Positions 378-28,456 of a DNA stretch of 36,693 bases are shown here, in pieces (the first letter of the stretch is position 1; the number at the start of each line of letters is the position of its first letter). The DNA lies in NCBI GenBank assembly GCA_005881825.1, contig VBEO01000149.1, forward strand, positions 1 to 36,693, written 5' to 3'. A program made the translations under genes and the position numbers. Under the pieces are notes generated by a model. The model worked only from the letters and a program-made list of their open reading frames with translations. It did no database searches and had not been told where the DNA came from. This DNA comes from Chloroflexota bacterium. GTDB lineage: Bacteria > Chloroflexota > Dormibacteria > Dormibacterales > Dormibacteraceae.

Positions 378-968
378 ATGCGCATCAAGAGCGTTTCCGA
401 CCAGGACGCCACCGGTCCGCTGCGTCAGCACTACGACGAAGCCATCGCGGACAGCGTCCTCAAAAGGGTCCCGCCGATCATCCAGACCATGAGCCTGCGG
501 CCCGACTTCATGAAGGCCATCAGGGAGGCGGTCAACACACTCCACTTCCGCGACGGCGCCCTGAGCCGGGCTCAGCACGAGATGGTCGCCTCCTACGTCT
601 CGGCCCTAAACCGCTGCCGCTATTGACTCAGCTCGCACACCTGGTTCCTGCAGTTGCAGGGCGAGCAGTACAGCGAAGCGGCCAGCGCGCTGCGCGACGG
701 TGACCTGGACGCGGCCAACCTCGACCAACCGCACCGCAAGCTTTTGGAGTTCGTGGAGACGATCACGCGCCACGCCTACAAGGTCACCGACGAGCAGGTC
801 CAGGAGCTGCGCGACCTGGGCTGGAGCGACGAGCAGATCGCCGAGGCCGTCTACGACGCCGCGCTCTTCAATCTCTTCGTGCGCCTGGCCGACTCCTTCG
901 GGATCGAGCCGCCGCCGCTCTACGAACCCGAGGGCATCCCGAAGGCGGTACTCGCCGACTCCATCTGA
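378..968 (+). CDS. AhpD/carboxymuconolactone decarboxylase-family peroxidase, candidate selenoprotein (CxxU)
   Basis: Reading TGA 624-626 as one residue gives a 196-aa protein in a single frame from ATG 378 to TGA 966. The TGA is residue 83 in N-R-C80-R-Y-(TGA)-L-S-S-H87, exactly where the family has the second Cys of CxxC. Mycobacterial AhpD uses Glu118, Cys130, Cys133 and His137; here Glu68, Cys80, TGA83 and His87 keep every spacing, and position 133 is the peroxidatic residue, the one where selenium would help. A SECIS-like hairpin follows. The downstream half keeps family-like helices (LLEFVETITRHAYKVTDEQV), so the frame is still under coding constraint. The likely role is thiol/selenol peroxidase or alkylhydroperoxidase. 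Alternatives: nonsense mutation or a TGC-to-TGA sequencing error. TGA is an ordinary stop in other genes here, so global reassignment is unlikely. Confidence 0.7.
631..666 (+). promoter_or_regulatory. SECIS-like hairpin downstream of in-frame TGA
   Basis: GCTCGC (631-636) pairs with GCGAGC (661-666), and CCTGC (647-651) pairs with GCAGG (656-660), closing a 4-nt loop AGTT (652-655). The only interruption is a 10-nt bulge on the 5' side (637-646). The apical loop begins 25 nt after the TGA and has G among its first two bases. This fits the published bacterial SECIS pattern (small loop with an early G, about 16-37 nt past the UGA). The hairpin lies inside the coding sequence, as bacterial SECIS elements do. 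Confidence 0.55.
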
Positions 969-11358: not shown

Positions 11359-13179
11359 GTGGAAGACGGCCGCCGGCGGGTCGTGGTGGAGAACGTGCGG
11401 CCGGAGGTGGACGCGGGCCGCTTCCCCGCCAAAGGCTCCCTCGGGGAGCCGGTGGTCGTCGAGGCCGACATCTTCGGCGACGGCCACGACCAGCTGACGG
11501 CCGTGCTGCTCTGGCGGCCGGTCGGCCACCGCGAGGAGGCGAGCTGGCGGGAGGTCCCGATGGCCCACCTCGTCAACGATCGCTGGCAAGGCTCCTTCGA
11601 ACCCCGCAGGACCGGCACCTGCGAGTTCGCCGTCCAAGCCTGGGTCGACCACTTCAAGTCCTGGGAGCACGACCTGGAGCGGCGCGATCGCGCCGACGCG
11701 GCGGCCGCCAGCGCTGCTCAAGCTGATGGAGAAGCACGGCGACCGCAGCCAGGCTGCCTGCTCGCCGCGCACCCCGCGGGTCCTGGTGGAGCGCGAGCGG
11801 GCGCGCTTCAGCGCCTGGTACGAGGTCTTTCCTCGTTCCACCTCACCGGATCCAGGCCGAGCCGGGACCTTCCAGGATCTCGAGACGCGCCTGCCCTACG
11901 TGGCGGGCATGGGTTTCCACATCCTCTATCTGCCGCCGATCCATCCCATCGGGCGCGCCTTCCGGAAAGGCCGGAACAACACGGTGAGCGGCACCCGCAA
12001 CGACGTCGGCAGTCCCTGGGCCATCGGCTCGGAAGAGGGGGGCCACAAGTCGATCAACCCCGACCTGGGCACGCTGGACGACTTCCGGCGCCTGGTCAAG
12101 GCCACCAAGCGGCACGGCATGGAGATCGCACTCGACATTGCGTTCCAGTGCTCACCCGACCATCCGTACGTGAGAGAGCACCCGGAATGGTTCCGGCAGC
12201 GGCCCGACGGCAGCATCCGCTATGCGGAGAACCCGCCCAAGAAGTACCAGGACATCTACCCCTTCAACTTCGAGACCAGCGACTGGCGGGCCCTTTGGGA
12301 CGAGCTGCTGAGCGTCTTCCTGTACTGGTGCGAGCAGGGGGTGCTCACCTTCCGCGTCGACAATCCCCATACCAAGCCCTTCCGCTTCTGGGAGTGGGCG
12401 CTGGCGCGCGTGCGCGAGCAGCATCCGGACGTGATCTTCCTCAGCGAGGCCTTCACGCGGCCCAAGGTCATGTACCAGCTGGCCAAGCTCGGCTTCAGCC
12501 AGTCCTACACCTACTTCGCGTGGCGCCAGGAGCCCTGGGAGATCCAGCAGTACGCCACCGAGCTGACAACGCCGCCGGTGGTCGACTTCTTCCGCCCCAG
12601 CTACTGGCCGAACACGCCGGACATCCTCACCGAGCAGCTGCAGCTCGGCGGCCGCGCCATGTCGGCCCTGCGCTTCGTGCTGGCGGCCACGCTGGGCGCC
12701 TCCTACGGGATCTTCGGCCCCTCCTTCGAACAGGTCGAGGTGCGGCCCTTGATCCCGGGGAAGGAGGAGTACATGGACTCCGAGAAGTACCAGGTGCGGA
12801 ATTGGGACTTCGAGCAGCCGTCCGGCCTGCAGGATCTGATCACGCGGGTCAACGCCATCCGCCGCGACCAGGCGGCCCTGCGCCACGATCGCACACTTCG
12901 GTTCCTGCGCACCGACAATGAGCGCCTGCTCGCTTACACCAAGACCGCGCCCGACGGCTCCGCCCCCGTCTGCGTGATCGTCAACCTCGACCCCCAGCAG
13001 CGCCAGTCGGGTTGGGTCGAACTGCCGGCGCTCGCGGAAAGCGAGTACGAGGTGGTCGACCTGCTCAACGGGCCTGTGTACCGCTGGCGCGGCGCCGGCG
13101 CCTGGAACTACGTGATGCTGGATCCCGCGCTCACCCCGGCGCACGTGTTCCGGGTCGGCGCACCCCTGCGGCCGCCCGA

Positions 13180-13183
<4 letters not shown>
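11359..13183 (+). CDS. glgE: Maltosyltransferase GlgE, frameshifted
   Basis: GlgE uses alpha-maltose-1-phosphate to extend alpha-1,4-glucan (GH13_3). Frame 1 from GTG 11359 encodes the N domain (RRVVVENVRPEVDAGRFPAK; VEADIFGDGHD; FAVQAWVDHFKSWEHDLERR). Near 11690-11725 the coding frame changes to frame 2, which continues KHGDRSQA, VERERARFSAWYEVFPRS, the barrel and its catalytic parts: LTFRVDNPHTKP (nucleophile Asp) and VIFLSEAFTRP (acid Glu). The helical segment normally between these, roughly 50-60 residues, is missing, so a deletion plus frame change is more likely than one lost base. Start GTG 11359 follows a TACGAT box by 8 nt. The stop overlaps the next start (GTGA). If the lesion is real the gene is dead; if it is an assembly error GlgE is normal. 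Confidence 0.8.
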
Positions 13184-16325
<3,142 letters not shown>

Positions 16326-16329
<4 letters not shown>

Positions 16330-18230
16330 GCCAGACTCAGTCCCGGCTGTCGATGCTCAGCGACGACGATCTCTACCTCTTCAACGAGGGCAGCCAGTTC
16401 CGGCTCTGGGAAAAGCTGGGCGCCCGCGTCGTCGAGGGCGGCGCCTGGTTTGGAGTTTGGGCGCCCAATGCCGAGAGCGTGTCGGTGATCGGCGACTTCA
16501 ACGGCTGGGATCCGCGCAGCAACCCACTGTCGCCGCGCGCCAACTCGGGAATCTGGGAGGGCCTGGTCGCCGGCCTGGGCAAGGGCACCCTGTACAAGTT
16601 CCACGTGATCGCACGCGGCGGCGCTTGGCGGGCGGACAAGACAGACCCGATGGGCATCTTCTTCGAGGTCGCACCCAAGACCGCCGCCATCGTCTGGGAC
16701 CTCGACTACCCGTGGGGTGATGGCGAATGGATGCGCGACCGGAAGGCCCGCAACGGCCCGGCCGCGCCGTGCTCGATCTACGAGGTGCACATCGGCTCCT
16801 GGATGCGCAACGAGCAGGCCGGCAACCACTCGCTCTCCTACCAGGAACTGGCCCCGCGCCTGGCCGACTACTGCGAGAAGATGGGCTTCACCCACGTCGA
16901 GTTCCTGCCCATCACCGAGCATCCCTTCTTCGGCTCCTGGGGATACCAGACGACCGGTTATTTCGCACCGACCTCGCGCTACGGCACGCCCCAGGACTTC
17001 ATGCAGCTGGTCGACCACCTGCACCAGCGCGGCATCGGTGTGGTTCTGGACTGGGTGCCTTCACACTTCCCGACCGACGAGCACGGTCTCGGCTACTTCG
17101 ACGGCACGCACCTGTACGAGCATGCCGACCCCCGGCGCGGGTTCCACCCCGACTGGAACAGCTACATCTTCAACTACGGCCGCCACGAGGTGCGGTCTTT
17201 TCTCATCTCGTCCGCCCTGTTCTGGCTCGACCGCTACCACATCGACGGCATCCGGGTCGACGCCGTCGCCTCGATGCTGTATCTCGACTACTCACGCAAA
17301 AACGGGGAGTGGATCCCCAACGATTACGGCGGCCGCGAGAACCTGGAGGCGATCGACTTCTTGCGGCGCTTCAACAAGGAGGTCTACGCAGCGTTTCCCG
17401 ATGTGCAAACCATGGCCGAGGAATCCACGGCCTGGCCGCTGGTGTCGCGTCCGACGTATGTAGGCGGCCTCGGATTCGGCATGAAGTGGGACATGGGCTG
17501 GATGCACGACACCTTGCAGTACATGTCGCGCGAACCGGTGCACCGCAAGTGGCACCAAAACGAGCTGACGTTCCGCGGCGTGTACGCGTTCAGCGAAAAC
17601 TACGTGCTGCCGCTGTCACACGACGAGGTCGTGCACGGCAAGGGTTCGCTGCTGGGCAAGATGCCCGGCGACGAATGGCAGAAGTTCGCCAACCTGCGCC
17701 TCCTCTTCGCTTACCTGCACGCCACGCCCGGCAAGAAGCTGCTCTTCATGGGCGGAGAGTTCGGCCAGGGCCGCGAGTGGAACCACGACTCCCAGATCGA
17801 CTGGTACCTGCTTCAGTACGGCTCGCACGAAGGCCTGCGGCGGTGGGTGGCCGACCTCAACCACGCGCACCGCGGTGAGCCCGCGCTGCACGCGCTCGAC
17901 TTCGATCCCGCGGGCTGGGAGTGGATCGACGCCAACGACAGCGTCAACTCCACCCTCTCCTTCCTGCGCAAGGCGCCCGGCGGCGACCTCATCGCCTGCG
18001 CCTTCAACTTCACGCCGGTGCCGCGCAGCGACTACCAACTGGGGGTGCCTCGGGGCGGGTTCTGGCAGGAGCTGCTGAACAGCGACGCGGCCGAATACGG
18101 CGGCACTGGCTGGGGCAACCTGGGTGGGGTGGAAGCCCGCGCGGAGGCCTGGCACGGCCGGCCGTGGTCGCTGACCATCGGCCTGCCCCCGCTGGGTGCG
18201 GTTTTCTTCAAATCCGCCGCTTCCGACTGA
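16326..18230 (+). CDS. glgB: 1,4-alpha-glucan branching enzyme GlgB, short form
   Basis: A 634-aa GH13_9 enzyme that makes alpha-1,6 branches. It has one CBM48 domain ([20 protein letters not shown]) and lacks the extra N1 module of E. coli GlgB. Barrel motifs: [27 protein letters not shown] (nucleophile Asp about 312), MAEEST (acid Glu about 366) and [15 protein letters not shown]. The TTG at 16326 overlaps the TreS-Pep2 stop (TTGA). ATG a few codons later ([13 protein letters not shown], at 16353) would give an equally good N terminus. It is coupled to the upstream gene and acts on glucan made by GlgE and GlgA. Confidence 0.95.
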
Positions 18231-18231
18231 C

Positions 18232-18237
18232 TATCCT
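18232..18237 (+). promoter_or_regulatory. Possible -10 box of the GH57-GlgA gene
   Basis: TATCCT lies 12 nt before ATG 18250, right after the glgB stop. It could give a separate transcript with a leader of a few nucleotides. Confidence 0.3.
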
Positions 18238-18249
18238 CTGAGCTTCGCC

Positions 18250-21200
18250 ATGCGACCGCTCCATCTCGCCCTGGTCTGGCACATGCACCAGCCCTACTAC
18301 AAGGACGACCTCACCAAGACCTACCTGCTGCCCTGGGTGCGGCTGCGGGCGGCCAAGGACTACCACAAGATGGCCGCCCTCCTGGACGACTACCCGCGCG
18401 TCCGCCAGACCTTCAACCTGGTGCCCTCGCTGCTGGCCCAGATCGAGGACTACACCCGCGGCGACTACGAGGACCTCTTCCTCAACCTCTCCCGCCGGCC
18501 CGCGGGGGACCTGAGCCACGAGGAGCGCAGGTTCCTGATCCACTGGACCCGCGAGTCGCCGCGTTTCCTGCGCGTGCAGGCGAGCCCGCGCTACTTGGAG
18601 CTGGCCACCCGGTCCGAGGATGAGACCTTCCTGGAGCAGGACATCCGCGACCTCCAGGTGTGGTCCAACCTGTCCTGGATCGACCCCGGATGGGTCGACC
18701 GCGACCCCGGCCTGTCCGAGCTCAAGGCCAAAGACGAGGGCTTCACGGAGCAGGACAAGGAGGTGCTCTTCGAAGCCCAGCTCGGCCTGATCGGGCGGGT
18801 GATACCCAAGTACGCCGAGCTGGCCCGCCGAGGGCAGATCGAGCTCACCTTCTCGCCCTACTACCACCCTATCCTGCCGCTGCTGGTCGACCTGGAGTCC
18901 GCCCGGGCCGCCATACCCCAGATCCGCCTTCCGACCCGGCGCTTCGCCCACCGCGAGGACGCCGAGCGCCAGATCGAGATGGGCATGAGCTCCTTCGAGC
19001 GGCTGATGGGGGTGCATCCGCGGGGCATGTGGCCGAGCGAGATGGCGGTCGGCGACTCGGTGGCCTCGCTGGCGGCGCAGGCCGGCGTCGAGTGGATCAT
19101 CTCCGACGACGACGTGCTCGCCCGGTCGCTGGAGGCAGGCCTGACGCGCGACGGCGAGGGCCGGCTGCATCAGCCCGAGGTCCTGTATGGCCCCTACGAG
19201 ATGGAGCGCGAGGGCGGCCGTGTCGCCCTGGTCTTCCGCGATGCCCTGCTCTCCAACCTGATCGGCTTCGACTACCACCGCATGCCGCCGCTGGATGCGG
19301 TGGCCGACTTCATGCGCCGGCTGCGCCGGATCCGCGAGCAGCAGGGCGAGGACCGAGACTTCCTGGTCACCGTCGCGCTCGACGGGGAGAACGCCTGGGA
19401 CTTCTACACCCGCGAGGGCAACGACTTCCTGGACGCGCTGTACAGCGAGCTGGATCGCGCCGAGGACGTGGTCTGCACCACGGTCGCCGACTTCCTGCAC
19501 GCTCATCCCGAGCGGCGGCCGCTGCACCGCCTGCACACCGGGAGCTGGATCGGGGCCACCCTCGATACCTGGATCGGCGATCCCGAGCACAACACGGCCT
19601 GGGACCTGCTGTCCGAGACGCGCGACTGGCTGGAGGACTACGCGCAGCACCACCCGCACGAGGCCGAGCAGGTGACCGCGGCCTGGCGCGAGGTCATGAT
19701 CACCGAAGGCTCCGACTGGTTCTGGTGGTTCTCGCGCAAGCACGACTCGGGCATGGACCAGATCTGGGAGAACCAGTACCGGCTGCACCTGCGCAACGTG
19801 TACAAGTTGGTCGGGGCGCGGCAGCCGGCTTCGCTCTTCAAACCCATCCTGGAGCGCGCCGGGGCCGACGAGCGGCGGATGCCGCTGCGCAACATCTCAC
19901 CGGCCACCGACGACGACCCCGCTTGGGAGAACGCCGGCCGCTACGAAGTGGGCAGTGGCTTCGGGGCCCTCCACAAGCCGGTCGGCTACATCAGCCGTTT
20001 GCTCTACGGCAGCGACGAGACCCACCTCCACCTGCGCATCGACAGCCGGCTGGCCCCGGAGTCCCTGGACTCGCAGGGCGTGCACTTCTGGCTCTACACG
20101 TCCGGGTCGCCCCAGGGCGAGGCGGTCGGCGAATCCCTGCGCGCGCCGCTGGCCGCGACCTCGCGGGTCGACCTCGGCTTCGACCCGGGCACCGCCATCC
20201 GGATCGGCGGCGGCGCGGTCACCGTCTGCCGGCTCAGCGAGGACCGCGCCGAGGCAGTGCCCACCGCCGTCTTCGAGCAGGGTCCGCGGGCGCGGGTGTC
20301 GGTCCCCTTCGACGCGCTCGAAAAGGCCGGGGGCGAACCCATGCAGCTGGCGCTGGTGGTCGAGGTGCGCGGGAAGGTCGTGGAGCAGATCCCGCCCATC
20401 GGCTCGCTGGGCCTGCGGGTGCCGCGGCGCGCCGACCTGGCCGAGGCCGGCGGGGGGCCGCCGCTCAAGATCCTGATCGCAGCGGCCGAAGTCGCCCCCT
20501 TCGCCAAGTCGGGTGGGCTGGCCGACGTCACCGCCGCCCTGGCCAAAGAGCTGCGCCGGCTGGGCCACGACGTCCGCCTGGTGATGCCGCGCTACCGGCA
20601 GGTCGGCATCGAGCGCAACCAGCTGCAGCCGGTCGTGCGCGGCCTGCGAGTCGGCCTCGGCAGCCACGGCATCGAAGCCTCGGTGCTGGAGGGCCGGGCG
20701 GGCGAGGTGCCTATCTACTTCATCGAGTGCCCGGCGCTCTTCGACCGCGACGGGCTGTATGGCTTCGGCGACGACGACGCCCGCTTCATCTTTTTCGACC
20801 TGGCGGTGGTGGAGATGCTGAAGCCGTTGGGCTTCATCCCGGACGTTATCCACCTTCACGACTGGCACGTGGCCCTGATCCCGAATTTGATCAACCGCGT
20901 CTTCTCGGCCGAGGAGGACCTGTCCGGGATCGCGTCCGTGATGACGATCCACAACCTCGCCTTCCAGGGGCAGTTCGGCTACGGCACTCTGCACCTGGCC
21001 GGCCTGGAGCCCTGGGGCCTGATGAAGGTGGGCGTGCCGCACCTCGACGACGTGGTCAACCTCTTGGGCCGCGGCATCCACTACGCGGATGTGATCAACA
21101 CGGTCAGCGAGCGTTACGCGCATGAGATCCAGACCCCTGAGTTCGGTGAGGGCATGGACGAGCTCCTGCGCATAAACGCCCACAAGCTGTACGGGATCGT

Positions 21201-21948
21201 GAACGGGATCGACACCGAGGTGTTCGACCCCATGCGCGACCCCGCGCTGCGCCACCTGTACAGCGCCGCCGACCTGTCGGGCAAGGCACAGGACAAGGCG
21301 CTGCTCCGCCGCGAGCTCGGCTTGGGGCCGTCAGCCGCGCCCATGATCGCCTTCATCTCCCGCTTCTACGAGCAGAAGGGTTTGGATCTCCTGGAGCAGG
21401 TGCTGCCGCGGCTGATGAGCTCGGGCCCCGACCTTCAGCTGGCGGTGCTGGGCACCGGGGACCGCCGCTACGAAGACCTCTTCCGCCACTTCGCGACCCA
21501 GCACCAGGGTCGGGTCGCCGCGGCCATCGGTTTCGACCCCGGGCTGGCTCAGCGCATGTACGCAGGCGCGGACATGCTGCTCATGCCCTCCCGCTTCGAA
21601 CCCGGTGGGCTGGGTCAGCTGATCGCGCTGCGCTACGGGACGATTCCGATCGTGCGCGCCACCGGGGGCCTGGCCGAGACCATCCGCGACTTCGACCCGG
21701 CCACCGGCGAGGGTCTCGGCTTCGTGTTCGACAACTACGACGCGTGGGACCTTTTCGGCGCCATCGTGCGCGCCGTCGAGGCCTTCCGGCATCGGGAGGA
21801 CTGGGCGAAGCTGGTGCAGAACGCGATGCACGAGGACGTCTCCTGGGCGCGCTCGGCCCACCGCTACGTGCAGCTGTACCGGACGGCCGTGGCCGGCCAC
21901 CGCTCGGCGTCCGGCTCGGTGGCGGTGGCTGCCGGAGGCAGCGGTTAG
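18250..21948 (+). CDS. glgA: GH57 glucanase/glucanotransferase fused to glycogen synthase GlgA
   Basis: A 1232-aa two-enzyme fusion. Residues 1 to about 540 are GH57: LVWHMHQPYY (conserved region 1), GMWPSEMA with the likely nucleophile Glu about 264, and ALDGENAWDFY with the Asp about 379, then EVMITEGSDWFWW. A beta-rich segment of about 190 residues follows (CHGDE-like carbohydrate module, inference). Residues about 738-1232 are GT5 glycogen synthase: KILIAAAEVAPFAKSGGLADV (ADP-glucose KxGGL motif), VIHLHDWHVAL, AFISRFYEQKGLDLL and MPSRFEPGGLGQL with TGGLAETI. GH57 enzymes cleave or transfer alpha-1,4/1,6-glucan, so one chain may extend and remodel glucan. The start is ATG 18250; an upstream extension of the frame overlaps glgB and is unsupported. 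Confidence 0.9.
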   Translation: MRPLHLALVWHMHQPYYKDDLTKTYLLPWVRLRAAKDYHKMAALLDDYPRVRQTFNLVPSLLAQIEDYTRGDYEDLFLNLSRRPAGDLSHEERRFLIHWTRESPRFLRVQASPRYLELATRSEDETFLEQDIRDLQVWSNLSWIDPGWVDRDPGLSELKAKDEGFTEQDKEVLFEAQLGLIGRVIPKYAELARRGQIELTFSPYYHPILPLLVDLESARAAIPQIRLPTRRFAHREDAERQIEMGMSSFERLMGVHPRGMWPSEMAVGDSVASLAAQAGVEWIISDDDVLARSLEAGLTRDGEGRLHQPEVLYGPYEMEREGGRVALVFRDALLSNLIGFDYHRMPPLDAVADFMRRLRRIREQQGEDRDFLVTVALDGENAWDFYTREGNDFLDALYSELDRAEDVVCTTVADFLHAHPERRPLHRLHTGSWIGATLDTWIGDPEHNTAWDLLSETRDWLEDYAQHHPHEAEQVTAAWREVMITEGSDWFWWFSRKHDSGMDQIWENQYRLHLRNVYKLVGARQPASLFKPILERAGADERRMPLRNISPATDDDPAWENAGRYEVGSGFGALHKPVGYISRLLYGSDETHLHLRIDSRLAPESLDSQGVHFWLYTSGSPQGEAVGESLRAPLAATSRVDLGFDPGTAIRIGGGAVTVCRLSEDRAEAVPTAVFEQGPRARVSVPFDALEKAGGEPMQLALVVEVRGKVVEQIPPIGSLGLRVPRRADLAEAGGGPPLKILIAAAEVAPFAKSGGLADVTAALAKELRRLGHDVRLVMPRYRQVGIERNQLQPVVRGLRVGLGSHGIEASVLEGRAGEVPIYFIECPALFDRDGLYGFGDDDARFIFFDLAVVEMLKPLGFIPDVIHLHDWHVALIPNLINRVFSAEEDLSGIASVMTIHNLAFQGQFGYGTLHLAGLEPWGLMKVGVPHLDDVVNLLGRGIHYADVINTVSERYAHEIQTPEFGEGMDELLRINAHKLYGIVNGIDTEVFDPMRDPALRHLYSAADLSGKAQDKALLRRELGLGPSAAPMIAFISRFYEQKGLDLLEQVLPRLMSSGPDLQLAVLGTGDRRYEDLFRHFATQHQGRVAAAIGFDPGLAQRMYAGADMLLMPSRFEPGGLGQLIALRYGTIPIVRATGGLAETIRDFDPATGEGLGFVFDNYDAWDLFGAIVRAVEAFRHREDWAKLVQNAMHEDVSWARSAHRYVQLYRTAVAGHRSASGSVAVAAGGSG

Positions 21949-23976: not shown

Positions 23977-25904
23977 TCATCCCCCCCAATCCGGCAGCAG
24001 CCGGAGCTGTTCGACGCGGCGCGCGGCGGGCGCGTACGCCTCCCAGAAATAATCGAGCACCATGCGCCGGGCCGAAAACTCGGTGGCCACCTGGCGGATC
24101 GACGCGCGGATCATCGCCAGCCAGCCCACCGGCAGCCCCCGCGCGTCCCGCTCGTAGTACAGGGGCACCACCTCGCGCTCGAGGACCCGGTACAGCACTT
24201 CGGCCTCACCCGGATCGTCCGCATTTGGCCGGTCCAAGGTGGCCCCGGAAGGGATAGCCCAGCCGATCTCGGGGCTGTAGCCCTCGTCCCACCAACCGTC
24301 CGGGACCGAACAGTTGAGCACGCCGTTGGCGCCGGCCTTCATGCCCGAGGTGCCCGAGGCTTCCAGGAAGCGGCGTGGGTTGTTGAGCCAGACGTCCGCC
24401 CCGTGCACCAGCGCCTGCGCGATCGCGATGTCGTAATCGGGCAGGAAGCAGACCCGGCGTTCGGAGCGGGCCAGGCCGACGACCTGGCGCAGGATCTCCT
24501 TGCCCGGCCCGTCGGCCGGATGGGCCTTGCCCGAGAAGACCAGCTGCAGCGGCCGTTTGGGGTCGTTGAGCAGCCGGGTCAGCCGCTTCAGGTCGGTCAT
24601 CACGAGGTTGGCGCGTTTGTAGGGCGCGAAGCGCCGGCTGAAGCCCAGCGTTAGGGCATCCACGTCCAGGTTGTCGCCGGTGAGCTCGTGCGCGAATTCG
24701 ACCAGGCGCGTCTTGAGCCCGCAGTGGATCTCCCAGAGCTCCTCGTCGGGAACGTTGTCGATGCCGTCCCAGCGGGGGTCGGTGGCGTCCAGGTCCCACC
24801 AGTCCCAGGCCACGTGCCGGCGCAGCAGGTCGGCCAGCTCGGGCGCCACCCAGGAGGGCATGTGGGCGCCGTTGGTGACCGAGCCGATCGGCACCTGTTC
24901 CTCGGGCAGGCCTGGCCAGGCGTCCTTCCAGAGCCGTCGTGAGACGGAGCCGTGCAGGCGGGAGACGCCAACCGAGTTGTCGGCCATGCGCAGGCCGACG
25001 AAGGTCGTGCAGAGCGGCTCGCGTGGGTCGCCGGGTGCGTGCCGGCCCAGGTCCATGAAGCGCTCGAAGGGAATGCCGACCTCGGCCAGGTAGCGGCCGA
25101 GCATCTCGTAGACCAGGCCCGGTTCGAAGTAGTCGCTGCCGGCGGCCACCGGCGTGTGGGTCGTGAAGAGGATGCCGGCCCGCGCCATCAGGCGCGCCTC
25201 CTGAAGGGTGAGCTGCCGGCGCTGGCGCAGCTCCCGGATCCGTTCGGCGGCCACCAGGAAGCCGTGGCCTTCGTTCATGTGGAAGACGGTGGCTTCGATG
25301 CCCATGGCCCGCAGCGCGCGCACTCCGCCGATGCCGAGCACGATCTCTTGGCGCAGGCGGCGGTCGGGCTCCGGCGTGTAGAGGCGGTCGCTGATGGTCC
25401 GGAAGTCGGCCGGGTTGTCGTCGAGATCGGTGTCGAGCAGGAAGAGCGGCACCCGGCCCACCGTTCCTCGTCGATCCGCTGGCGGCCGAAGCCGTTGCGG
25501 TAGAGCAGGCCGACCCCGACCAGCGGGAGGCCGAGGTCGCTGGAGGCCTTGAGGTGGTCGCCGGCCAGAATCCCCAAGCCGCCGGCGTATATGGGCAGGC
25601 ACTCGACGAGCCCGAACTCGAGCGAGAAGTAGCCCACCACCAGCGGCGCCCGGGCGTCGAGGAAGGGCGGCATGCGGTCGCGATGCTCGCGGATCGCCGT
25701 GCGCGCGGCGTCCAGAGCCGCCGCAACCTCCGGCCGTTCGACGGCGGCCGCCATGCCTTCGTCGCCGAGGCGGTTCAGGAGCGCGATCGGGTTCTGTCCG
25801 GTCTCCCTCCAGAGCTCGGGGTCGAGCACCTCGAAGAGGCGAGTGATTCGTGGCTCCCAGGACCAGGTCAAATCAAGGGCAAGGTCCTTGAGGTCAGCCG
25901 ACAC
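23977..25904 (-). CDS. glgP: Alpha-glucan phosphorylase GlgP, frameshifted
   Basis: GlgP cleaves alpha-1,4-glucan with phosphate to glucose-1-phosphate, using PLP. Frame A from GTG 25904 gives the N domain (LALDLTWSWEPRITRLFEVLDPELW, VVGYFSLEFGL, YAGGLGILAGDHLKASSDLG). At about 25456-25464 the coding frame changes; frame B resumes at GRVPLFLLDTDLDDNPADFRT and continues to the PLP motif ASGTSGMKAGANG and WDEGYSPEIGWA. Comparing with the family (alpha-glucan phosphorylase subfamily, TIGR02094), roughly 40-45 residues between RQRIDEERW and GRVPL are missing. The junction has a short repeat (CGGTGG/GTGGGC), compatible with deletion or assembly collapse. GTG 25904 lies 9 nt after a TAGCAT box on the minus strand. 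It is divergent from the nucleotidyltransferase gene. Confidence 0.85.
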
Positions 25905-25909
25905 GGAAC

Positions 25910-25919
25910 TACCATGCTA
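25910..25919. promoter_or_regulatory. Overlapping bidirectional -10 (glgP / nucleotidyltransferase)
   Basis: TACCATGCTA contains TACCAT for the plus gene (9 nt before ATG 25925) and, on the complement, TAGCAT for glgP (9 nt before GTG 25904). The two hexamers share two bases, and the whole intergenic space is 20 bp. Confidence 0.55.
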
Positions 25920-25924
25920 GGGGC

Positions 25925-28456
25925 ATGCGGGCCGTGGTCATGGCGGGCGGGGAGGGCTCCCGGCTGCGGCCGTTAACGAGCCAGCGCCCTAAGCCCCTCG
26001 TGCCGGTGGCGGGCCGGCCGATCATGGAGCACATCCTGCTGCTGCTCCGCCGCCACCAGGTGCGCGAGGTGGTCGCGACTGTGCAGTACCTGGGGGCCTA
26101 CATCCGCAACTACTTCGGCGACGGGTCGGAGCAGGGCGTGAACCTCAGCTACTCCGTCGAGGACACACCGCTGGGTACGGCGGGGTCGGTGAAGCTGGCT
26201 GAGGACCAGCTGCGCGAAACCTTCGTGGTGATCAGCGGCGACGCCCTCACCGACATCGACCTCGGCGCCGCGGTGCGCTTCCACCGACAGCGGCAGTCGA
26301 TGGCGACCATCGTGCTCAAGCCCGTGCCCAACCCGCTCGAGTACGGGGTGGTGGTGGCCGACGAGGAGGGCCGCGTGCAGCGGTTTCTCGAGAAACCTTC
26401 CTGGGGCGAGGTCTTCAGCGACCTCGCCAACACCGGCATCTACGTCCTGGATCCAGCTGTGTTCGAGTATTTCAAGGGCGGCGAGGTCACGGACTGGTCG
26501 GGCGACGTCTTTCCCAAGCTGCTGAAGGAGGGCGAGCCCGTTTTTGGCTGGGTGGCCGATGGCTACTGGGAGGACGTGGGCAGCCATCAGGCCTACCTGA
26601 AGGCAAACTTCGACTGCCTGGAAGGCCGGGTCGCGGTGGACATCCCCGCCGAGCGGCGGGATGCCAAGGTCTGGATCGCCGATGACGCCGACGTGGCTTC
26701 GGATGCCCGGGTTGACGGCCCAGCCCTGATCTGCTCCGGGGCCAAGGTGCGGCGCGGGGCCTGGATCAACGGGCCCTGCGTGATCGGCGCCTACTCGACA
26801 GTCGACAACAACGCCAAGCTTTCCAACACGATCCTGTGGGATCACGCCTACGTGGGTGAGAACTCGCGCCTGCGGGGCACCGTGCTCTGCCGCGGGGTCA
26901 CCGTGAAAAACGGGGCTCTCCTGGAGGAGGGGTCGGTCATCGGCAGCGATGTCGTGATCGGCAGCAACGCCTCCGTCAACGCCAACGTGCGCATCTGGCC
27001 CAACAAGGAGATCGAGCCCGGCGCCGTGGTGCGGGAGTCGATCATCTGGGCGGGGTCCTGGAAGCGGGGGCTGTTCACCGCCTACGGGCTCACGGGCCTG
27101 GCCAACGTGGAGTTCACGCCCGAGTTCGCGGCGCGCCTGGGCGCCTCCGTGGGCGCGCTCTATCCAAAGGGTGGCACGGTCGCCATCTCGCGCGATTACA
27201 CGCGGTCGGCGCACATGATCCACCGGGCGGTGGCGTCGGGGCTGATCTCCTCCGGGGCCAACGTGATCGACCTCTCGACGCTGGCCATCCCGGTCGTGCG
27301 CCACTGGGCGCGCCGGCACCGGATGCCGGTGATCCACATCCAGTCCTCGCCCGTCGATCCCCGCTCGCTGGACATTCGCATCTTCGACACCACCGGCCTG
27401 GATCTCGACAAGCGCAGCGAGCGCAAGCTCGAGAACCTGTACTTCCGTGAGGACGTACGGCGGGTCTCGCATTTCGAGATGGGCCACCTGCAGCAGCGGG
27501 TCGACGATTACGACTCGTACGTGAGCGAGCTGCTGTCCAAGCTCGACGTGGAGACGGTGCGGCCGTCGAAGCTGAAGGTCGTGGTCGACTACAGCAGCGG
27601 CGCCGCGACCCAGGTCCTGCCGCGCGTGCTGCAGGAGATGAACTGCACGGTCATCCCCCTGAACGCTTCGCCCGAGGAGATCGTGGCCGAGCAGGATGAC
27701 AAGGCGTTCCAGGCGCGCCTGGTGGAGATCGGGGTGATCACCCAGGCCGTGGGGGCGAACCTGGGCCTCTTCATCGACTCACCGGGAGAGCGGGTCTTCC
27801 TGATCGACCAGGAGGGCCGCGTGCTGCAGCACGACGTGGCTTTCGCCGTGCTGGCGCAGCTGGCCCTGCTGGGGCGGCCGGGGCTGTTGCTGGGGCCGGC
27901 CTCGGCGTCGCTGGCCTTTTCCAAGATCGCCGAGCAGCTGGAGTCGCGGTTCGTGCCCACCAAGACCACGCCCGGCGCGGTGCTGCGCTCGGCGCAGCAC
28001 ACGGAGACCGTGCTCGCCTCCGATGGGGGCGGAGGCTACTGCTGGCCCGAGTTCCAGCTGGCCTTCGACGGCGTCTACACGACGGCCAAGCTGCTCGAGC
28101 TGCTGGCCACCTCCGGGGTTGGGCTGCGCGAGCTGCGGGCGCACGTGCCGCGGGTCGGTTATGAGCGGATGGTGGTGTTCTGCCCTTGGGAGGCAAAGGG
28201 GCGCGTGATGCGGATCGTGATGGAGAAGCACCTGGAGGATCGGGTCGACCTGACCGACGGCGTGAAGGTGTTCGTCGACGATGGATGGGTGCTGGTGGTG
28301 CCGGACCCTGACCGGCCCGAGTACCAGGTCATCGCCTCGACCGAGGACCCTGTGCACGCCGCACGCCTGGTCGAAGAGTACGCGGCCGTGGTCCGCTCGG
28401 CTGTGGCCGAGGTGCGGCCTGAGGCCGAGCACGTGGTGGAGCGGGAGTCGAGCTAG
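25925..28456 (+). CDS. Sugar-1-phosphate nucleotidyltransferase fused to a degenerate phosphomannomutase
   Basis: An 843-aa protein. Residues 1 to about 235 are a nucleotidyltransferase: MRAVVMAGGEGSRLRPLT followed by RPKPLVPVAGRPI, then GDALTDIDL (metal Asp) and FLEKPSWGE. Residues about 250-370 are a left-handed beta-helix of hexapeptide repeats. Residues about 385-843 align with phosphomannomutase, but its key motifs are replaced: TASHNP by QSSPVDP, the DGDxDR metal loop by DSPGER, and GE-SGH by DGGGGYCWPEF. Catalysis by this half is doubtful and a regulatory role is possible. Related Actinobacterial proteins are annotated mannose-1-phosphate guanylyltransferase; the nucleotide and sugar are not certain. 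Next to glgP and near GlgA it may supply NDP-glucose. Confidence 0.85.
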   Translation: MRAVVMAGGEGSRLRPLTSQRPKPLVPVAGRPIMEHILLLLRRHQVREVVATVQYLGAYIRNYFGDGSEQGVNLSYSVEDTPLGTAGSVKLAEDQLRETFVVISGDALTDIDLGAAVRFHRQRQSMATIVLKPVPNPLEYGVVVADEEGRVQRFLEKPSWGEVFSDLANTGIYVLDPAVFEYFKGGEVTDWSGDVFPKLLKEGEPVFGWVADGYWEDVGSHQAYLKANFDCLEGRVAVDIPAERRDAKVWIADDADVASDARVDGPALICSGAKVRRGAWINGPCVIGAYSTVDNNAKLSNTILWDHAYVGENSRLRGTVLCRGVTVKNGALLEEGSVIGSDVVIGSNASVNANVRIWPNKEIEPGAVVRESIIWAGSWKRGLFTAYGLTGLANVEFTPEFAARLGASVGALYPKGGTVAISRDYTRSAHMIHRAVASGLISSGANVIDLSTLAIPVVRHWARRHRMPVIHIQSSPVDPRSLDIRIFDTTGLDLDKRSERKLENLYFREDVRRVSHFEMGHLQQRVDDYDSYVSELLSKLDVETVRPSKLKVVVDYSSGAATQVLPRVLQEMNCTVIPLNASPEEIVAEQDDKAFQARLVEIGVITQAVGANLGLFIDSPGERVFLIDQEGRVLQHDVAFAVLAQLALLGRPGLLLGPASASLAFSKIAEQLESRFVPTKTTPGAVLRSAQHTETVLASDGGGGYCWPEFQLAFDGVYTTAKLLELLATSGVGLRELRAHVPRVGYERMVVFCPWEAKGRVMRIVMEKHLEDRVDLTDGVKVFVDDGWVLVVPDPDRPEYQVIASTEDPVHAARLVEEYAAVVRSAVAEVRPEAEHVVERESS

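What the first reader, a model, noticed from the sequence alone, without database searches (positions are those of the whole stretch)
378..968. Candidate AhpD-like selenoprotein with CxxU active site and SECIS-like hairpin
An in-frame TGA replaces the exact catalytic Cys of CxxC, with Glu68/Cys80/TGA83/His87 keeping the spacing of AhpD Glu118/Cys130/Cys133/His137. A two-stem hairpin with a small G-containing loop lies 25 nt downstream. The frame continues for 114 codons with family-like sequence. AhpD-like selenoproteins have been predicted in metagenomes; the phylum here may be new for them.
Basis: partly seen in the sequence, partly recalled or inferred. Interest (0 to 1): 0.85.

Follow-up and report, generated by a model that had tools for sequence, protein, structure and literature searches.

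The report
AhpD-like selenoprotein in a soil bacterium
A small antioxidant-type enzyme gene in a Dormibacteria (Chloroflexota) soil bacterium uses a UGA 'stop' codon to insert the rare amino acid selenocysteine at its active site; this is a real and widely conserved selenoprotein, but it belongs to a selenoprotein family described since 2005.

Summary
The finding holds. Window 378-968 (+) encodes a 196-residue AhpD-like protein with an in-frame TGA at 624-626 replacing the second Cys of CxxC; Glu68, Cys80, Sec83 and His87 are invariant in 31 aligned homologues. The genome carries selA, selB, selC (UCA anticodon), a selD that itself has a TGA, and two formate dehydrogenases with TGA at the Sec site. 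All 37 distinct sequences of its clade have TGA there, including one from a single-contig genome and two from Planctomycetes, so sequencing error is excluded. A hairpin CCUGC-AGUU-GCAGG starts about 20 nt after the TGA and is almost unchanged at nucleotide level; one Leu codon inside it is TTG in 35/35 although TTG is 6% of Leu codons elsewhere in the gene, and one homologue has a compensatory pair change. Cys-bearing homologues mostly lack the hairpin. The protein passes TIGR01926, already catalogued as a CxxU selenoprotein family, so this is a new member of a known kind; the searched library holds no report for Dormibacteria. Most likely it is a Sec-enhanced peroxide or disulfide reductase. 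Caveats: activity is inferred, and this genome's selB is interrupted before its SECIS-binding domain (assembly error or recent lesion).

The parts
378..968 (+). CDS of AhpD-like selenoprotein, 196 residues with Sec at 83, TIGR01926 / PF02627
   Evidence: Translation; TIGR01926 92 bits over cut-off 81.8; PF02627 45.9 over 23; AF2 pLDDT 93.5, PDB matches TM 0.80
624..626 (+). in-frame UGA read as selenocysteine (Sec83), at the position of AhpD's second active-site Cys
   Evidence: TGA in 35/35 distinct sequences and in all 37 of the tree clade; 71 Sec and 16 Cys among 87 wider homologues
615..617 (+). codon of Cys80, partner in the C-R-Y-U motif
   Evidence: invariant in 31 rows
579..581 (+). 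codon of Glu68, presumed proton-relay residue (AhpD Glu118 equivalent)
   Evidence: invariant in 31 rows; role by analogy with AhpD
636..638 (+). codon of His87, presumed proton-relay residue (AhpD His137 equivalent)
   Evidence: invariant in 31 rows; role by analogy with AhpD
646..661 (+). bacterial SECIS apical hairpin: U-CCUGC-AGUU-GCAGG-G (loop 652-655 contains G653)
   Evidence: 100% standard pairs in 35 sequences, one compensatory C-G to U-A; TTG Leu codon 35/35 against 6.3% background; no Rfam hit

Best explanation
The gene encodes a selenocysteine form of the AhpD-like 'peroxidase-related' family (TIGR01926). During translation the UGA at 624-626 is decoded as Sec by Sec-tRNA(UCA), delivered by SelB docked on the hairpin just downstream (646-661). 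The product is an all-helical AhpD/CMD-fold protein in which Sec83 sits where the second, attacking Cys of the CxxC sits. By analogy with AhpD, Glu68 and His87 activate the selenol; Sec83 attacks a peroxide or disulfide, the selenenic acid is resolved by Cys80 as an S-Se bond, and a dithiol reductant restores it. Shown here: the frame, Sec conservation, SECIS constraint, Sec machinery and fold family. Inferred: actual UGA read-through, the catalytic cycle, the substrate and the reductant.
For: Sec machinery: selC over cut-off with UCA anticodon, selA 494 bits, selB 326 bits, selD 368 bits with its own TGA in GAGUACK, two FdhA with TGA in VUHGPTV / IUHSSTV. TGA at the same column in all 37 distinct sequences of the clade, including a single-contig genome (G142, L077) and Planctomycetes at 42-44% identity. 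Purifying selection continues after the TGA: dN/dS about 0.04-0.15 downstream in 7 close pairs. SECIS. Family. selA is over its cut-off in 29 of the 32 genomes with the gene; the three exceptions are only 59-80% complete.
Against: No expression or mass-spectrometry data. The genome's own selB is interrupted: the N part matches relatives' SelB to residue about 499 and the C part resumes at 534 in another frame, so the SECIS-binding end is not in one frame in this assembly; SelB of all 11 checked relatives of the same class is in one frame. The hairpin is not exceptional thermodynamically. Peroxidase activity is by analogy; not all CMD-fold proteins are peroxidases.
Confidence: 0.95

Rival explanations
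1. Sequencing or assembly error, TGC/TGT misread as TGA.
For: The assembly is a fragmented 158-contig genome and at least one other gene (selB) looks damaged.
Against: TGA in all 37 distinct sequences of the clade from separate assemblies, one of them a single-contig genome; nucleotide-level hairpin conservation.
Confidence: 0.01
2. Pseudogene, or two separately translated fragments (a TTG at 654 could start a 104-residue ORF).
For: A mechanical ORF finder gives exactly that fragment.
Against: Conserved frame and purifying selection on both sides of the TGA; motif residues on both sides are invariant; relatives show the same TGA rather than varied lesions.
Confidence: 0.02
3. The organism reads UGA as an ordinary sense codon (Trp, Gly or other), not Sec.
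For: None found; the frame would also be open under such a code.
Against: The gene itself ends in TGA, as do many homologues; family homologues have Cys at this column; Sec machinery is present.
Confidence: 0.01
4. The family is a selenoprotein but this strain no longer makes it, because its selB is broken.
For: selB frame interrupted before the last winged helix, with about 33 residues missing.
Against: The selenoprotein gene, selA, selC, selD and both fdhA are kept; the break lies in a GC-rich inverted-repeat stretch and the protein after it keeps 71-73% identity to relatives, as an assembly fault would.
Confidence: 0.12
5. The protein works mainly as a general dithiol-disulfide (thioredoxin-like) or reactive-nitrogen reductase rather than an alkyl hydroperoxidase.
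For: The PDB title of M. tuberculosis AhpD calls it an enzyme with thioredoxin-like activity; about 20 family relatives carry a truncated-globin-like gene (PF01152) directly upstream on the same strand.
Against: No globin gene beside the window's gene; the genome's one PF01152 match is a different globin.
Confidence: 0.3

Closest known systems
AhpD-like selenoprotein family, TIGR01926 CxxU (PMC13188914; Sargasso Sea PMC1088965)
   Same: Same family model over cut-off, same CxxU motif, SECIS just downstream
   Different: Host lineage Dormibacteria/Chloroflexota; a clade with no Cys member found here and a near-fixed AGUU-loop SECIS
NF041238 AhpD-related CFYUT (seleno)protein
   Same: Related domain with CxxU
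   Different: 77 bits against cut-off 175; only a part of the longer model matches
D. radiodurans AhpD-like protein 6k40 and D. geothermalis 2oyo (Cys forms)
   Same: Same fold, TM 0.80, 27-28% identity, CxxC and His aligned
   Different: Cys instead of Sec
M. tuberculosis AhpD (1knc, 1gu9)
   Different: 13-15% identity, TM about 0.5; TIGR00777 AhpD model not met (20.8 against 191.95)

Membership tests
Bacterial selenoprotein | In-frame UGA aligned with Cys in homologues, with conserved sequence beyond it | tested here: met
   71 Sec / 16 Cys at the column; selection downstream
Bacterial selenoprotein | SECIS stem-loop immediately downstream with a small loop containing G | tested here: met
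   criterion as worded in PMC1088965
Bacterial selenoprotein | selA, selC, selD in the genome | tested here: met
Bacterial selenoprotein | Functional selB in the genome | tested here: inconclusive
   Present over cut-off but frame interrupted in this assembly; intact in relatives
Bacterial selenoprotein | Selenium shown in the protein | not testable with these tools
   needs expression and mass spectrometry
TIGR01926 peroxidase-related (AhpD-like) | Score over the curated cut-off | tested here: met
   92 bits, cut-off 81.8
TIGR01926 peroxidase-related (AhpD-like) | AhpD/CMD fold with Glu, Cys, Cys/Sec and His at AhpD spacing | tested here: met
AhpD sensu stricto (TIGR00777) | Score over the curated cut-off | tested here: not met
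   20.8 against 191.95
NF041238 AhpD_rel_CFYUT | Score over the curated cut-off | tested here: not met
   77 against 175
AhpD (function) | Peroxidase activity recycled by a dithiol donor | not testable with these tools
   biochemical assay needed

The most novel reading that the evidence does not exclude
In Dormibacteria the Sec-AhpD-like protein and an upstream truncated-globin-like protein form a two-gene module for handling nitric oxide, peroxynitrite or organic peroxides in soil bacteria, with Sec kept without any Cys reversion in the clade.
Probability: 0.2. Interest if true: 0.55.

Novelty: new member of a known kind. Interest (0 to 1): 0.4.

Why it matters
It gives Dormibacteria, a little-cultured soil lineage, a firm predicted selenoproteome (SelD, two FdhA, AhpD-like) and shows that standard gene calling truncates this gene. 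The close clade is Sec-only in all sequences found, while the wider family switches between Sec and Cys at least four times with the hairpin weaker in Cys forms: a usable natural experiment on SECIS gain and loss and on why Sec is kept.

Tried and rejected
Rfam SECIS_1 (RF00031) on the genome gave nothing, but rang in no control either, so it is uninformative; cmscan of 500-800 gave nothing up to E 10. Folding energy of the hairpin alone was not significant. A conserved neighbourhood was sought: the truncated-globin neighbour of family relatives is not next to this gene, and the genome's PF01152 match elsewhere is only 26% identical to it over 57 residues with E 0.075. An upstream 'GTTA' recurrence before the start codon in relatives was seen but not developed. 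'One TGA' flags in the wide search are not all Sec: in L084, L087 and L096 the active site is Cys, so only sequences read at the column were counted. selA co-occurrence was not used as a statistical test because selA is nearly universal among the relatives. One dN/dS pair (L053/L058) and the upstream values for the L020 pairs are spoiled by indels.

Full report
Observation. The frame 378-968 (+) has an in-frame TGA at 624-626 and continues to a terminal TGA at 966-968. Under a standard code an ORF caller sees only a 104-residue fragment from a TTG at 654. The complete protein matches PF02627 (45.9 bits, cut-off 23), TIGR01926 'peroxidase-related enzyme' (92, cut-off 81.8) and the AhpD core domain TIGR00778 (42.8, cut-off 27.8), but not AhpD proper TIGR00777 nor NF041238.

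Sec machinery. The host genome (3.09 Mb, 158 contigs, 92% complete) has a tRNA-Sec over the Rfam cut-off (74 bits, contig 66:18462-18557; ARAGORN anticodon tca), adjacent selA and selB on contig 144 and selD on contig 92. SelD has a TGA in GAGUACK. Two formate dehydrogenase alpha genes each carry one TGA, in the motifs VUHGPTV and IUHSSTV; one lies on contig 66 close to selC. So at least four selenoprotein genes are predicted. A caveat: selB is interrupted in this assembly. Its N part aligns to relatives' SelB residues 1-499 and its C part resumes at 534 in another frame, whereas SelB of all 11 checked relatives of the same class matches the model from end to end without a break. The stretch is GC-rich with an inverted repeat. 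I regard assembly error as likelier than a real lesion, but cannot show it.

Homologues. In 61 genomes (own and relatives) the gene is in 32, each with one in-frame TGA (the column itself was read for 31 of these, not for G012); 29 of the 32 have selA over the cut-off and the three without are only 59-80% complete. From genome contigs come Chloroflexi/Dormibacteria records and two Planctomycetes at 42-44% identity, all with TGA at the same column, and one distant gammaproteobacterial Cys form. Among 35 distinct sequences the TGA is universal, and the tree clade of 37 is Sec throughout. In 31 aligned rows Glu68, Cys80, residue 83 and His87 are invariant. Close pairs show dN/dS of about 0.04-0.15 downstream of the TGA, so translation past it is under selection.

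Wider family. A phylum search found matches in 111 of 400 genomes. Reading the column in the fetched sequences gives 71 Sec and 16 Cys. A careful tree needs 6 Sec/Cys changes, at least 4 forced by well-supported branches; long branches make details unsure and direction is not inferred. One single-contig genome (G142) has both a Sec gene of the window's clade (L077) and a Cys paralogue of another clade (L117).

SECIS. The TGA is followed at +20 to +35 by U-CCUGC-AGUU-GCAGG-G (646-661). Over 35 sequences the six pairs are 100% standard, with one compensatory change in L027 (CUUGC-AGUU-GCAAG). The codons over it are TTC in 34/34 Phe, CTG 34/35, CAG 35/35, TTG 35/35 and CAG 34/35, while in the rest of the same genes TTG is 6.3% of Leu codons. 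Codons elsewhere in the gene vary freely. The sequences are related, so no probability is given, but the constancy extends to Planctomycetes. Across the wider family different subclades have different hairpins in roughly the same place (e.g. CUGCUUU-GGC-AAAGCAG, GACCUC-CGUGCU-GAGGUC), and the local fold is stronger in Sec than in Cys sequences (median -8.7 against -4.7 kcal/mol; Mann-Whitney p 2e-5, not corrected for relatedness). The loop has a G, the common feature named in the Sargasso Sea study. The hairpin alone is not thermodynamically exceptional (z -0.99) and no Rfam family matches.

Structure. AlphaFold2 with 31 sequences gives pLDDT 93.5, pTM 0.89, all helices, with Cys80/Sec83 at the start of helix 81-93 (Sec modelled as Cys). 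Closest solved structures are Cys proteins of the same family: 6k40, 2prr, 2oyo, 3c1l, 2pfx (TM about 0.8, 24-28% identity); M. tuberculosis AhpD is more distant (TM about 0.5).

Mechanism. From the known AhpD scheme (general knowledge): Glu and His relay a proton from the second Cys, which attacks the substrate, and the first Cys resolves. Here the attacking residue would be Sec. That Sec83 is the attacking residue and that the substrate is a peroxide are inferred. In about 20 same-family relatives a truncated-globin-like gene (PF01152, 38.9 bits) lies directly upstream on the same strand, hinting at nitric-oxide or oxygen chemistry, but not beside the window's gene.

Known or new. TIGR01926 CxxU AhpD-like proteins are in the 2026 catalogue of prokaryotic selenoproteins, and AhpD-like families 1 and 2 are in the 2008 ocean survey. 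No paper in the searched library combines Dormibacter* with selenoprotein, selenocysteine or selenium, while the term itself finds papers. This is a solid new member in an apparently undescribed lineage, not a new kind.

Noticed in passing
G000:C144 about 1890-1920 (L009 1084-1099, - strand): The genome's only selB is interrupted: about 33 residues missing and the frame changes before the C-terminal winged helix, while relatives are intact.
   Followed up: partly
G000:C66:17084-17839 and C146:14468-15217 (L142, L144): Two formate dehydrogenase alpha genes with in-frame TGA at the canonical Sec site; one close to selC.
   Followed up: partly
G000:C92:19217-20128 (L016): selD itself has an in-frame TGA in the motif GAGUACK, so selenophosphate synthetase is a predicted selenoprotein.
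   Followed up: partly
upstream of the gene in L021, L025, L033, L040, L045, L058 and others: Truncated-globin-like gene (PF01152) directly upstream on the same strand in about 20 same-family relatives, absent beside the window's gene.
   Followed up: partly
about 10-20 nt before the start codon in most same-family relatives: Recurrent CGTTA/GTTA motif shortly before the start codon, possibly a promoter -10 element of a leaderless transcript.
   Followed up: no
L102, L103, L107, L108, L112, L113, L121, L123, L125 against L117: Another subclade has a conserved CTGCTTT-GGC-AAAGCAG hairpin after its TGA; its Cys relative L117 lacks it.
   Followed up: partly
window 11726-21948 and 23977-28456: Cluster of ORFs that look like glycogen/trehalose enzymes (glycosidases, branching enzyme, glycogen synthase, phosphorylase, nucleotidyltransferase), judged by eye only.
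   Followed up: no
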